From Candidatus Jorgensenbacteria bacterium CG23_combo_of_CG06-09_8_20_14_all_54_14 (GTDB lineage Bacteria > Patescibacteriota > Minisyncoccia > UBA6257 > GWB1-50-10): a stretch of 12,088 bases of DNA. The position numbers and the translations under genes were made by a program. Under the pieces are notes generated by a model that saw nothing but the letters and a program-made list of their open reading frames with translations, was not told where the DNA came from and searched no databases. The stretch's first letter is position 1, and every line of letters starts with the position of its first letter. The DNA is taken from the NCBI GenBank assembly GCA_002772205.1, contig PCRZ01000015.1:1-12088 (forward strand), in the 5' to 3' direction. This document shows, piece by piece, positions 1,059 through 10,826 of the stretch.

Positions 1059-1094
1059 GCCTCAATTTATACTCATATGAGTATAAATTGAGGC
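1059..1094. repeat. Perfect 36-bp palindrome, family A, downstream copy
   Basis: The half-site GCCTCAATTTATACTCAT is followed by its exact reverse complement, centred on CATATG. It lies 56 bp past the stop codon of the Cas2/PaaX-like gene at 1151-1666. It matches the imperfect palindrome 1705-1740 upstream of that gene at 29 of 36 positions. No T-run follows on either strand, so a terminator is unlikely. A binding site for a dimeric protein or a REP-like element fits better. Confidence 0.85.
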
Positions 1095-1150: not shown

Positions 1151-1666
1151 CTACGCTTGAGGTAATTTGAAAATTCTTCTCAACTCTTCATCCCCTTCTA
1201 TTATTTCCACCAGCATTACCTTGCAATATCCTTCCAAATCGTACTCCACAATCAACTTCCAAAATTCCTCGCTCATGTGACTCGGACACACATACACGCT
1301 TTTCTGAAGTTGGTGGAAACCAAACCTCTTGAGAAAATATCTTAATTGTTGGCGCTTTTCATCGGAACGCACCGGCACGTCAAAGCTCACCAAGCGCCAT
1401 TTCCCGTCCCACTTCTTCGTGTGAACGGTGTTCCGCAACCGCTTGAGCAAATAAATAAATCCTTTTGGAGTAACTGAAAATTTTCCCTCTTTCCTTTGTA
1501 CAATGCCGTTTGTAATAAAGCGGCGGAGTGATTGCCTTAAATATTTATTCTTCCGATGGCGCTTTATAAATTCCTCAACTACTGCATCTGCAACGACATG
1601 GGCATCGTGAAAAAATTCCGACCACTCTCTAATATGTCTCGCTGCGTCACGTGAAGTTTTAGCCAT
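1151..1666 (-). CDS. Stand-alone winged-helix/Cas2-like (PaaX-type) protein A
   Basis: A 171-residue protein. Residues about 22-78 look like a winged-helix DNA-binding domain (helices to RRFITNGIVQRKEGKFSVT, then GFIYLLKRLR). Residues about 87-160 are Cas2-like: KWRLVSFDVP with Asp96 at the end of strand 1, where Cas2 nucleases keep their key Asp, then RYFLKRFGFHQLQKSVYVCP. This layout is that of the PaaX repressor family, whose central domain has the Cas2 ferredoxin-like fold. Automatic pipelines often label such proteins Cas2. There is no cas1, effector gene or CRISPR array in the window, so an adaptation role is unlikely. A DNA-binding regulator is inferred. The start ATG at 1666 follows an extended -10 promoter and a 36-bp palindrome, which suggests autorepression. 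GC is lower than in the neighbouring metabolic genes. It is clearly related to the second copy at 10114-10680. Confidence 0.75.
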   Translation of the reverse strand: MAKTSRDAARHIREWSEFFHDAHVVADAVVEEFIKRHRKNKYLRQSLRRFITNGIVQRKEGKFSVTPKGFIYLLKRLRNTVHTKKWDGKWRLVSFDVPVRSDEKRQQLRYFLKRFGFHQLQKSVYVCPSHMSEEFWKLIVEYDLEGYCKVMLVEIIEGDEELRRIFKLPQA

Positions 1667-3061: not shown

Positions 3062-3322
3062 TTACAGAACTTTTAACACGTCGGCTATGGTTTGCTGTCT
3101 CACATACACTTTTGCAATTTCTTCTCTGAGGGAGAGCAGGAAACACAAGTTCACCCGCCACTTGGGGTCAAGGAGGAACATGTCAATCAAATTCAGAGCT
3201 CGTTCAAGTGAGGCGGTAAATTTCCCGAGATCGCTCTGCCACTCTCGCGCCCGCAAGAGTTCAGAAACGACATTGAGAACCTGCTGGTATTGAGAGAGTT
3301 TAAAAATGGCATCGGGTACCAT
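3062..3322 (-). CDS. Small helical protein of unknown function
   Basis: An 86-residue protein if started at ATG 3322, one base after the stop of the DUF5674 gene. A TTG at 3355 would add 11 residues but overlaps that gene. It is predicted to be almost entirely helical, with leucine-rich stretches (QVLNVVSELLRA, RALNLIDMFLLD, FLLSLREEIAKVYV), no membrane segment and no recognisable catalytic motif. The tight spacing on both sides supports a real gene in the operon. Helical assembly or partner binding is conceivable, but nothing in the sequence shows a role. Confidence 0.55.
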   Translation of the reverse strand: MVPDAIFKLSQYQQVLNVVSELLRAREWQSDLGKFTASLERALNLIDMFLLDPKWRVNLCFLLSLREEIAKVYVRQQTIADVLKVL

Positions 3323-6035: not shown

Positions 6036-6145
6036 GCCAATCTCGTTGAAATTTGAACATGGGTAAATGTTACCACAAAATCGGGTGCCCCGCACCAATT
6101 TCATCGGCCGCGGAAACTTCGGAATTGTTATTCTTATTCGTCGAG

Positions 6146-6169
6146 GGCGCTATACCATAGTATAGTGTC
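6146..6169. promoter_or_regulatory. Imperfect 24-bp palindrome upstream of the sugar kinase
   Basis: It differs from the perfect palindrome at 6228-6251 in 3 of 24 positions. On the minus strand it covers a TATACT word (6159-6164) that could be the kinase's -10 box, although no good -35 is present. The two copies start 82 bp apart, close to eight helical turns, suiting cooperative binding or looping. Confidence 0.55.
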
Positions 6170-6227: not shown

Positions 6228-6251
6228 GGCGCTATACCATGGTATAGCGCC
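6228..6251. promoter_or_regulatory. Perfect 24-bp palindrome centred on CCATGG
   Basis: GGCGCTATACCA is followed by its exact reverse complement. It starts 11 bp after a plus-strand TATAAT (6211-6216) that has no -35 partner. The core ACCATGGTATA is shared with the operator at 10018-10055. Confidence 0.75.
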
Positions 6252-6391: not shown

Positions 6392-6403
6392 TTTAGATAT
6401 GAT

Positions 6404-6457
6404 GTTACGCTGCAGCATAACACTATGACGCGTCATAGCGCTATGCTATAGCATAGC
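6404..6457. repeat. Three adjacent palindromes of different sequence
   Basis: 6404-6421 is an 18-bp palindrome around CTGCAG with one mismatched pair (arms GTTA/TAAC). 6423-6438 is a perfect 16-bp palindrome, CTATGACG and its complement. 6440-6457 is a perfect 18-bp palindrome, GCTATGCTA and its complement. The block is flanked by CATAACACTAT (6416-6426) and CATAACGCTAT (from 6461). Confidence 0.65.
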
Positions 6458-6524
6458 AGGCATAACGCTATTAGAAAATTATTGAGGTTCAACCTAAGTA
6501 GTACAACTCTTTCTTAAATCTAAT

Positions 6525-6564
6525 ATGTCACGTAAAAAAAGCCATGGCTTTTTTTACGTGACAT
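6525..6564. repeat. Perfect 40-bp palindrome, family B, distal copy
   Basis: The outer arms ATGTCACGT/ACGTGACAT enclose A7-GCCATGGC-T7; every base pairs. The inner 38 bp (6526-6563) have the same layout as the sites around the second Cas2/PaaX-like gene: TGTCAC, 10 bases, CCATGG, 10 bases, GTGACA. The A7/T7 tracts resemble a bidirectional terminator, but there is no loop and the arms match family B, so a protein-binding or REP-like role is preferred. It lies 108 bp past the second transketolase subunit gene. Confidence 0.85.
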
Positions 6565-7664: not shown

Positions 7665-7682
7665 GTATCGATGCGAATATAC
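7665..7682 (+). repeat. Left inverted repeat of the cassette
   Basis: The 18-bp end; its last 13 bases (GATGCGAATATAC) are a perfect match to the complement of 8113-8125. Confidence 0.75.
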
Positions 7683-7694
7683 TAATAATACGAG

Positions 7695-8075
7695 TTATAC
7701 GAATTTATGTCTCGCATCTGTTTCTATTTTCACTATGCGCACCGGTTTCAAATACCGATTTCTAAAATTGACGAGCAAACCCAATTTCAAATTTGCGGTT
7801 TGTAGATAACGCTGCACCTGATAAAAATCCTGCTTTTCTATTAGGCGTTTCGCTTTGATTTCAAGAACCACCTTGTTATCAACCACAAAATCAACGATAT
7901 TGCCTGCCCTGTCTATTGGGTATTCTCTCCGGTAAGGCACCTTCTTTTCCTTCAATCGGAGTTCTATTTCATCTCCATATTGTTTCTCCCTCAAAAACCT
8001 TCCCTTTTCATTATGAACACCGAAGCAGATGCCTGTAATCGCGTATGACAGCTCAGGATAGATAATTTTTGTCAT
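7695..8075 (-). CDS. GxxExxY protein, PD-(D/E)XK nuclease fold
   Basis: A 126-residue protein of the GxxExxY family, common in CPR and other environmental bacteria and with no settled function. The start at ATG 8075 (MTKIIYPELSYAITG) fits the family; an ATG at 8102 adds nine residues encoded by repeat-derived DNA. The eponymous region is GRFLREKQYGDEI (25-37). The nuclease-fold core follows as VDFVVDNKVVLEIKAK (61-76), with Asp62, Glu72 and Lys74 as the D...ExK residues, then YQVQRYLQTANLKLGLLVNF. It lies in the same direction as, but unrelated to, the transketolase subunits it separates, inside an inverted-repeat cassette. This points to insertion as a unit. Ends in TAA at 7695. Confidence 0.85.
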   Translation of the reverse strand: MTKIIYPELSYAITGICFGVHNEKGRFLREKQYGDEIELRLKEKKVPYRREYPIDRAGNIVDFVVDNKVVLEIKAKRLIEKQDFYQVQRYLQTANLKLGLLVNFRNRYLKPVRIVKIETDARHKFV

Positions 8076-8112
8076 TCGAGTATTTTCCATCATTCGTATC
8101 ATTAGTAAATTC

Positions 8113-8130
8113 GTATATTCGCATCGCTAC
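8113..8130 (-). repeat. Right inverted repeat of the cassette
   Basis: This is the complement of the 7665-7682 repeat with one mismatch (17 of 18), directly next to the stop codon of the first transketolase subunit. Confidence 0.75.
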
Positions 8131-10016: not shown

Positions 10017-10045
10017 TTGTCACCAGAACCTCACCATGGTATAAT
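10017..10045 (+). promoter_or_regulatory. Sigma70-type promoter of Cas2/PaaX-like gene B
   Basis: TTGTCA (10017-10022), a 17-bp spacer and a perfect TATAAT (10040-10045). Predicted start near 10052, about 60 bp before the ATG at 10114. Both boxes lie within the 38-bp palindrome, apart from the first base of the -35. Confidence 0.8.
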
Positions 10046-10055
10046 TCACGTGACA
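10018..10055. promoter_or_regulatory. 38-bp palindrome, family B, operator on the promoter
   Basis: TGTCAC, 10 bases, CCATGG, 10 bases, GTGACA. It spans the -35, spacer, -10 and transcription start of the Cas2/PaaX-like gene, so a bound protein would exclude RNA polymerase. Its outer and central hexamers are identical to those at 6526, 10709 and 10789. Confidence 0.8.
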
Positions 10056-10113
10056 TACCAAACAAGTATAGGCTAAGGGAGTGCGGAACGATTACGCGGA
10101 GGGACACGAGAAC

Positions 10114-10680
10114 ATGAAACTGCGCAAAAATTCCAGGGCATACAAAATACTGAAACGCCTCGCCATCGGCGGCGGCTTCATCGTTCTCTCAACCATTGCC
10201 CCACAGAGCGGCACGCTCATTGTGAGGAGTTTATTAAGGGACTACTTCCGGCGAAAAAGGTTCGAGAGATACCGATGGCTCAATGACCTCAAAAACCTCC
10301 AAAAGAGGGAACTCGTTGATTACCGTGAGCTCGGTGACGGAAGGATTAAAATTACCATTACCAGGCGCGGGAAGATGGAGGTCCTCACCTACCGCTTTGA
10401 CCACCTCAAACTCCAAAGACCGGCGCGGTGGGATAGGAGGTGGCGGTTGGTCATGTTCGATATTCCCAGCGGCTGCAAGAAAGCCCGCGACGCGTTCCGG
10501 CAAAAGTTGAGGAGTCTGGAATTCTATCCCCTCCAAAAGAGCGTTTTCATAACGCCCTTCCCGTGCGAAAAGGAAATAGATTTTCTCGCCTCCATTTTTG
10601 ACGTCCAAAAATATACCCTCCTCCTCTACGTGAGTGGTTTTGAGGGCGAAGAAAAACTAAGGCACCACTTCAAAATCTAA
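10114..10680 (+). CDS. Stand-alone winged-helix/Cas2-like (PaaX-type) protein B
   Basis: A 188-residue protein related to the one at 1151-1666. The start at ATG 10114 has GGAGGG ten bases upstream; a GTG at 10081 would add 11 residues but is poorly spaced from AAGGGA. The N-terminal 15-35 (LKRLAIGGGFIVLSTIAPQS) is hydrophobic. Residues about 35-95 form a winged-helix-like region (RRKRFERYRWLNDLKNLQKR, ELVDYRELGDGRIKITITRRG). Residues 106-188 are Cas2-like: WDRRWRLVMFDIPSG with Asp116 in the Cas2 metal position, FRQKLRSLEFYPLQKSVFITP, and the common CPR ending FEGEEKLRHHF. Such proteins are abundant in CPR genomes and often labelled Cas2, but no cas1 or array is near. The promoter is buried in a 38-bp palindrome and two identical copies follow the gene, suggesting autorepression or a REP-like partnership. 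DNA binding is inferred. Confidence 0.8.
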   Translation: MKLRKNSRAYKILKRLAIGGGFIVLSTIAPQSGTLIVRSLLRDYFRRKRFERYRWLNDLKNLQKRELVDYRELGDGRIKITITRRGKMEVLTYRFDHLKLQRPARWDRRWRLVMFDIPSGCKKARDAFRQKLRSLEFYPLQKSVFITPFPCEKEIDFLASIFDVQKYTLLLYVSGFEGEEKLRHHFKI

Positions 10681-10708
10681 CCGAACGAAACCATCAGCAC
10701 CACAGCCA

Positions 10709-10746
10709 TGTCACCGCAATTCAGCCATGGCGTAATTCACGTGACA
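10709..10746. repeat. 38-bp palindrome, family B, downstream copy 1
   Basis: TGTCAC, 10 bases, CCATGG, 10 bases, GTGACA, 28 bp after the stop codon of protein B. The 44-bp stretch 10708-10751 is identical to 10788-10831. No T-run follows, so it is not a standard terminator. Confidence 0.85.
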
Positions 10747-10788
10747 ATGCCCGACCAAACAAAACCATCGAAATCATAATCATAGCAA

Positions 10789-10826
10789 TGTCACCGCAAT
10801 TCAGCCATGGCGTAATTCACGTGACA
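10789..10826. repeat. 38-bp palindrome, family B, downstream copy 2
   Basis: An exact copy of 10709-10746, starting 80 bp later. Perfect identity over 44 bp while the 36 bp between differ indicates recent duplication or selection on the element itself. Confidence 0.85.

What the first reader, a model, noticed from the sequence alone, without database searches (positions are those of the whole stretch)
10018..10826. Cas2/PaaX-like gene bracketed by three copies of a 38-bp palindrome
TGTCAC-N10-CCATGG-N10-GTGACA occurs on the promoter (10018-10055) and twice after the gene (10709-10746, 10789-10826; 44 bp identical). The upstream copy exactly covers a TTGTCA-17-TATAAT promoter. A protein of repressor architecture next to a site of this kind suggests autorepression. 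The extra copies past the gene are not explained by simple repression and resemble the layout of REP palindromes around their RAYT genes. To my knowledge the palindrome partners of stand-alone Cas2-fold proteins in CPR bacteria are undescribed.
Basis: partly seen in the sequence, partly recalled or inferred. Interest (0 to 1): 0.85.

Follow-up and report, generated by a model that had tools for sequence, protein, structure and literature searches.

The report
Private palindromes bracketing small repressor genes
In these tiny-genome bacteria, small DNA-binding genes are boxed in on both sides by copies of a long palindrome that is particular to each gene and is also scattered alone between other genes, a layout reminiscent of the bacterial REP repeats but built on a different kind of protein.

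Summary
The window holds four copies of the 38-bp palindrome (one perfect, at 6526-6563), and the second Cas2/PaaX-like gene (1151-1666) is bracketed by its own, different palindrome. In this genome and its relatives, 60 of 86 scorable PaaX_M genes carry near-identical long palindromes within 250 bp on both sides, against 0 of 251 other ORFs. In named GTDB loci it is 28 of 78 against 0 of 436. The palindrome is private to each gene. Single copies also lie between other genes, mostly in genomes with the matching gene. Copies differ by complementary changes in both arms. At one conserved locus a congener lacks the gene and keeps one palindrome. TrpR-like genes show the same layout (20 of 47), so a Cas2 nuclease is not required. 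Best reading: PaaX-type repressors, with a 38-bp dyad close to the published 39-bp PaaX site, bind their own palindromes; the upstream copy probably mediates autorepression, and copies spread like REP elements. Binding, autorepression and the agent of spread are inferred.

The parts
10018..10055 (+). upstream palindrome of gene B, over a TTGTCA-17-TATAAT promoter-like site (10017-10045)
   Evidence: outer 6-bp arms and CCATGG centre match, inner arms are imperfect
10114..10680 (+). gene B: 188-aa winged-helix + Cas2-like (PaaX_M) protein (ORF open from GTG 10081)
   Evidence: PF20803 70 bits, PF09827 27 bits; AlphaFold2 model pLDDT 87.5; best Foldseek hit E. coli PaaX 8a39 E 5.4e-5
10709..10746 (+). 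first downstream palindrome copy
10789..10826 (+). second downstream copy, tandem duplicate (59 nt, 92%)
   Evidence: D3
6526..6563 (+). solo, perfect copy of the same motif with different inner arms, between the pfkB-like gene and a transketolase-like gene (the latter name from reading the ORF, no family call)
1151..1666 (-). gene A: 171-aa PaaX_M protein of another subfamily
   Evidence: PF20803 71.5 bits
1706..1739 (-). upstream palindrome of gene A (CCTCA...CATATG...TGAGG)
   Evidence: (D6/I1)
1059..1094 (-). downstream palindrome of gene A, perfect 36 bp

Best explanation
Gene B and its kin are PaaX-type dimeric DNA-binding repressors (N-terminal winged helix, C-terminal Cas2-like domain) that recognise their own long palindrome. 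The upstream copy overlies the gene's promoter, so the protein most likely represses itself. The downstream copy and the scattered single copies are further sites of the same protein that have spread and are renewed as units of about 30-40 bp, much as REP elements accompany RAYT genes. Their arms stay self-complementary through a hairpin-dependent process at DNA level (template switching) or because pairing itself matters. Shown: bracketing, private pairing, dispersal, complementary changes, a gene-free orthologous site with one palindrome, and the same layout in TrpR-like genes. Inferred: dimerisation, binding, autorepression, and the agent that spreads the copies.
For: Bracketing in 60 of 86 genes against 0 of 251 control ORFs and 28 of 78 against 0 of 436. 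Upstream and downstream copies of one gene 87% identical on average, against 43% between genes of one genome. Upstream copy centred a median 38 bp before the start, downstream copy a median 47 bp after the stop (88 pairs). Upstream copies more promoter-like: 51 against 19 of 85. Published E. coli PaaX site TGATTC-N27-GAATCA, and paaXY repressed by its own product (passages of the review PMC9493321), against TGTCAC-N26-GTGACA here. Subfamily-conserved outer bases and a nearly invariant C at -3. Single copies go with the gene, lie in unrelated flanks with sharp edges for the CATATG class and favour 3' ends. Compensatory changes. The same layout around TrpR-like regulators.
Against: No binding data. 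In the strict test 26 of 86 genes lack a pair, window gene B among them, because its upstream copy is a poor palindrome. In the wider GTDB set 50 of 78 lack a pair, and E. coli paaX has none. Single copies are not mainly at promoters, which a plain repressor would not need. The CCATGG copies in the window's genome share asymmetric inner arms and some flanking sequence, so that set seems to have spread as a larger unit. In G039 most single copies have a core that no PaaX_M gene found there matches. Promoter enrichment is modest: 13 of 85 upstream copies score 10 or more, against 4 of 85 downstream copies and 7 of 85 upstream copies read outward. The E. coli dyad quoted by the review was not found intact upstream of paaX in K-12 by my scan.
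Confidence: 0.5

Rival explanations
1. REP/RAYT-like mobile system: the Cas2-fold protein is itself the nuclease that cuts hairpins of its palindrome and multiplies them; the gene with its two palindromes is the parent element and single copies are its non-autonomous offspring.
For: Layout, co-variation and compensatory changes match what the RAYT paper reports (PMC2817692, passages and section 5). Patchy carriage within genera. The Asp of the FDIP motif, at the Cas2 catalytic position (role recalled), is invariant in the 59 aligned proteins, whereas E. coli PaaX has Glu in the aligned place (weak alignment, E 0.037). Flank similarity of CATATG single copies stops at the palindrome edge. A decayed gene tail stands before a copy at G000:C28 (by reading).
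Against: No transposase domain found in the window proteins. TrpR-like genes share the layout. Copies are more often direct than inverted. An orthologous unit keeps its place next to tRNA-Leu in congeners, no jump was seen, and no target-site duplication was found.
Confidence: 0.2
2. Plain regulon: all palindromes are operators. The downstream copy is a roadblock or looping site and the single copies control other genes; perfection and symmetry come from ordinary selection for dimer binding.
For: PaaX operator geometry; promoter-like upstream copies; conserved subfamily half-sites.
Against: Of 23 CATATG single copies inspected, 18 could be classified: 8 lie between two 3' ends, 3 between two 5' ends; background in another genome is 38 convergent, 147 tandem and 31 divergent. 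Inner positions that differ between copies of one genome are still often complementary (219 double against 189 single-arm differences), which dimer binding alone does not demand.
Confidence: 0.2
3. The palindromes act as RNA hairpins (terminator, stabiliser or target of an RNase-like Cas2 domain) rather than as DNA sites.
For: Compensatory changes and 3' location; Cas2-like fold.
Against: A run of four T within 10 nt after the downstream copy in only 13 of 86 (3 of 86 after the upstream copy). The window's promoter-like site lies inside the upstream copy, so that copy would hardly be transcribed. The central six bases, which would form the loop, are themselves palindromic in 65 of 86 downstream copies.
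Confidence: 0.1

Closest known systems
PaaX repressor (E. coli, Jannaschia)
   Same: Winged helix plus Cas2-like domain; dyad of about 38-39 bp with 6-bp half-sites and self-repression (review PMC9493321, passages)
   Different: 188 aa instead of 316 aa, so no room for the C-terminal domain; no paa gene among the nine window proteins scanned; palindrome on both sides and scattered; E. coli paaX has no such pair
REP elements and RAYT transposases
   Same: Gene flanked by two copies of its own palindrome, scattered intergenic copies, co-evolution, preserved complementarity (PMC2817692, passages and section 5)
   Different: No Y1 transposase domain found; pairs more often direct than inverted; up to 13 copies counted per genome instead of dozens to hundreds; longer palindromes without the GT(A/G)G head
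Cas2 of CRISPR systems
   Same: Fold and FDIP motif; some public entries are named CRISPR-associated endonuclease Cas2
   Different: Extra winged-helix domain; gene B scores below the Cas2 equivalog cut-off (19.9 against 24.5 bits), gene A above it (29.9); no cas gene among the nine window proteins scanned
TrpR/YerC-like regulators of the same bacteria
   Same: Same bracketed layout with private palindromes (20 of 47 scorable)
   Different: Trp_repressor-type domain, no PaaX_M or Cas2 match in the one scanned; shorter palindromes (mostly about 16-36 bp)

Membership tests
PaaX family | PaaX_M domain above the Pfam cut-off | tested here: met
   70 and 71.5 bits against 24
PaaX family | PaaX equivalog TIGR02277 | tested here: not met
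   gene A 30.6 bits against cut-off 264.55; gene B not listed
PaaX family | winged helix followed by a Cas2-like domain in one chain | tested here: met
PaaX family | long dyad operator of about 39 bp with autorepression | tested here: inconclusive
   38-bp dyad on the promoter-like site against TGATTC-N27-GAATCA in PMC9493321; binding not tested
PaaX family | control of phenylacetate genes | tested here: not met
   no paa gene among nine window proteins scanned; only the window was looked at
REP/RAYT | gene flanked by two copies of its own palindrome | tested here: met
   60 of 86
REP/RAYT | flanking copies in inverted orientation | tested here: not met
   17 direct, 6 inverted, 37 undecided of 60; differences mostly small
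REP/RAYT | Y1 (HUH) transposase | tested here: not met
   only PaaX_M and CRISPR_Cas2 match in Pfam at E 0.001
REP/RAYT | scattered intergenic copies in the genome | tested here: met
   copy number lower than in REP families
Cas2 | Cas2 equivalog TIGR01573 above cut-off | tested here: inconclusive
   gene A 29.9 above, gene B 19.9 below 24.5
Cas2 | next to cas1 and a CRISPR array | tested here: not met
   no cas gene among nine window proteins scanned; arrays not searched with a dedicated tool
Insertion sequence | precise empty site and target duplication | tested here: inconclusive
   gene-free site with one palindrome in G011; intergenic flanks too diverged to read the junction

The most novel reading that the evidence does not exclude
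A widespread class of minimal selfish cassettes in Patescibacteria: a small DNA-binding gene (PaaX/Cas2-like or TrpR-like) between two copies of its private hairpin palindrome, which spreads and rewrites that palindrome across the genome, swaps recognition sequence quickly, and leaves a single palindrome behind when the gene is lost, much as a solo LTR marks a lost retrotransposon.
Probability: 0.25. Interest if true: 0.9.

Novelty: new variant of a known kind. Interest (0 to 1): 0.72.

Why it matters
Patescibacteria have very small genomes, yet this one keeps 10 PaaX_M matches and 9 TrpR-like matches (8 over the cut-off) in about 0.5 Mb, many with their own palindrome pair. If the rule holds, it gives a direct route from each such protein to its DNA sites without experiments, explains 'stand-alone Cas2' annotations in these bacteria, and offers a natural series of fast-changing protein-DNA pairs. 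It also gives the REP question (repressor site, selfish repeat or both) a second, unrelated test system.

Tried and rejected
A Cas2-specific mechanism was weakened by finding the same layout around TrpR-like genes. Viral or plasmid carriage: 25 pattern hits in viral contigs, none confirmed; no match in the phage or plasmid collections at E 1e-5. Unit mobility: G010 against G050 at fba-prfA shows presence and absence, but the intergenic DNA is too diverged to read a junction; a flank search of G050 found nothing, which by the tool's own note shows nothing. Pseudogene remains next to single copies: tblastn at E 0.01 gave only a 26-residue match at E 0.005 besides a known gene; it did not recover the decayed tail at G000:C28, which I saw by reading a translation. 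Two palindromes 496 bp apart (start to start) in G050, a genome without a PaaX_M match, enclose no ORF of 60 aa and no remnant that tblastn found. Relation to tRNA genes: present at some loci only. Terminator role of the downstream copy: T-runs in 13 of 86. Sequence search of solved structures with the alignment gave one weak hit, E 0.18. The upstream-against-downstream count is biased because both copies were chosen for being palindromic; avoids this for the inner arms, using the 75 sites printed of 78 found, but its pairwise counts are not independent. Control ORFs are all ORFs of 100 aa or more by a simple rule, so some are spurious, and two loci (L141, L145) enter twice. No separate ORF control was run for the TrpR-like loci. 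Literature searches were judged from their listings.

Full report
Observation. The motif TGTCAC-N10-CCATGG-N10-GTGACA is at the three stated places and at a fourth, 6526-6563, where the palindrome is perfect; none of 200 shuffles gave a match. Upstream of gene B it covers TTGTCA-17-TATAAT. The genome has 12 copies with 0-1 mismatch, none with the reversed pattern. The window's other Cas2/PaaX-like gene (1151-1666, minus strand) is bracketed by a different palindrome with a CATATG centre. Gene names below that carry no family call (fba, prfA, argS, rpmA, xerD, transketolase) are my reading of the sequences.

The rule. The window's genome has 10 PaaX_M matches; 22 of 29 genomes (family and order) and 28 of 42 (same family) have at least one. 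I scored 91 genes with one script: a palindrome on each side within 250 bp, and at least 65% identity between the two over 38 bp. Five genes were too near a contig edge. Of the other 86, 60 pass, 10 have only an upstream palindrome, 7 only a downstream one, 4 two unlike ones and 5 none. Of 254 other ORFs scored, 3 passed and all three are themselves PaaX genes, so 0 of 251 (a few of these ORFs are counted twice). Six of the nine scorable genes of the window's own genome pass; window gene B fails because its upstream copy has imperfect inner arms. Some failures look bracketed by eye, for example G005:C3:38275, whose two CATATG sites at 37951 and 38595 were found by the pattern search. In 80 GTDB loci kept of 275 confirmed by similarity to gene B, 28 of 78 scorable genes pass against 0 of 436 ORFs. 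E. coli paaX has no pair.

Private pairs. The two copies of one gene are 87% identical on average (60 genes). An upstream copy compared with the downstream copy of another gene averages 43% in the same genome (2 of 128 reach 65%) and 42% in other genomes (66 of 3412). Within protein subfamilies some bases are shared: a nearly invariant C three bases from the centre, CCAC and TTA in the arms of gene B's subfamily, CCTCAA in gene A's (subfamilies assigned by motifs of my own choosing, 24 of 86 left unassigned).

Scattered copies. The pattern CTCA-N7-11-CATATG-N7-11-TGAG was sought in 42 genomes: 78 matches in 18 genomes, control pattern 3. By my reading of the proteins, 13 genomes carry the matching subfamily. 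They hold 64 matches (11 of 13 positive); the other 29 hold 14 (7 of 29 positive; G050 has four and G014 two without any PaaX_M match). Of the 61 printed matches in carriers, I count 18 within about 400 bp of a PaaX_M gene, so 43 are single copies. In G004, G013, G036, G038 and G043 the single copies share the core of that genome's gene palindrome; in G039 most do not, and in G003 the one site does not. Flanks of the copies inspected are unrelated: mean identity 0.30-0.36 outside against 0.70-0.93 inside, in five genomes (the G000 set includes two gene-flanking copies). Of 23 sites inspected, 8 lie between two 3' ends, 7 in tandem gaps, 3 between two 5' ends, 3 inside doubtful ORFs and 2 at contig ends. 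Background gaps in another genome are 38 convergent, 147 tandem and 31 divergent (simple ORF calls). The CCATGG copies behave differently: most share asymmetric inner arms and some flanking sequence, and one follows what reads as a decayed tail of a gene-B-like gene.

Complementary change. In 73 of the 75 printed CATATG matches with equal arms, 561 of 637 inner pairs are complementary (chance 25%), though the pattern did not ask for it; 40 of 73 are perfect. Between copies of one genome there are 219 double complementary differences, 189 single-arm ones, 45 in which both sides changed and pairing was lost in one copy, and 18 others (pairwise, not independent). Between upstream and downstream copies (84 pairs) the counts are 96 compensatory and 103 single-arm, with about 6.5 compensatory expected if arms changed independently, subject to the selection bias named above. 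At an orthologous place in two congeners the outer arms are kept while the inner core differs symmetrically. Template switching during replication can do this (abstract and opening of PMC8794818).

Turnover. Between xerD and tRNA-Leu(TAG), G038 has the gene with two palindromes; G040 has a related gene (52% identity) and downstream palindrome before the same tRNA, its contig starting too late to show xerD; congener G011 has xerD and the tRNA but no gene between them, only a single palindrome close to that of G040. Near argS, G038 and G039 have single palindromes in extra intergenic DNA that G040 lacks; G038 also keeps what looks like a decayed palindrome of the other core. The rpmA-side palindrome of G038 and G039 is missing or decayed in G011, which has no gene of that subfamily. 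In the fba-prfA gap, three of 30 loci read hold a unit; single palindromes of other families stand there in G035, G040 and G037, and those of G035 and G040 resemble the palindrome of a gene elsewhere in the same genome.

Function. PaaX of E. coli binds TGATTC-N27-GAATCA and represses its own operon, according to the review PMC9493321 (passages). The window motif has the same geometry within one base. My scan found no intact copy of that dyad just upstream of K-12 paaX. Upstream copies here are more promoter-like than downstream ones in 51 against 19 of 85 (15 ties); exact TATAAT in the gene-facing half occurs in 11 of 88 upstream and 3 of 88 downstream copies, and in 4 of 88 upstream copies read outward. 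This favours autorepression, but modestly.

Generality. A palindrome pair around a TrpR-like gene in G051 led me to test that family: 49 matches in 42 genomes (11 of them under Pfam's cut-off), 9 in the window's genome. Of 47 scorable, 20 pass the same strict test, and several more have short identical pairs. The layout therefore does not seem to depend on a Cas2 fold.

Conclusion. The finding is a real, general layout that resembles REP/RAYT systems but rests on repressor-like proteins. The library searches PaaX+Cas2+palindrom, PaaX+Patescibacteria and PaaX+Parcubacteria found no paper; preprints and most subscription journals are not held. RAYT features are from passages and section 5 of PMC2817692.

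Noticed in passing
L338-L387; window's genome G000: TrpR-like (PF01371) genes, 9 matches in the window's genome, are often bracketed by private palindromes too (20 of 47 scorable in 42 genomes).
   Followed up: partly
window 6145-6165, 6228-6251, 6403-6458: A cluster of further palindromes in the gap before the pfkB-like gene; two resemble palindromes of TrpR-like genes elsewhere in the genome.
   Followed up: partly
window 7665-7686 and 8109-8130: 22-bp inverted repeats (91%) bracket the PDDEXK_3 gene 7695-8102; by eye a similar sequence lies in L102 555-609.
   Followed up: no
L238-L257 (G018, 400 kb): Other scattered palindrome families not tied here to any gene, e.g. TGTTACAGCGTACTAGTACGCTGTAACA-type four times and CTTATTCGCGCGAATAAG-type about five times.
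   Followed up: no
prfA locus in G000, G002, G004, G008, G010, G023: PaaX_M genes of different subfamilies sit beside prfA in several genomes.
   Followed up: partly
G038-G040, L304 about 3142-3203: A roughly 60-bp repeat with many copies in the genomes of one genus.
   Followed up: no
G039 solo sites (L302-L307): A TGCATATGCA-type palindrome family with no matching PaaX_M gene found in that assembly (93% complete).
   Followed up: no
public names of homologues: Some relatives of gene B are filed as CRISPR-associated endonuclease Cas2 in Harrisonbacteria, probably a misleading name.
   Followed up: no
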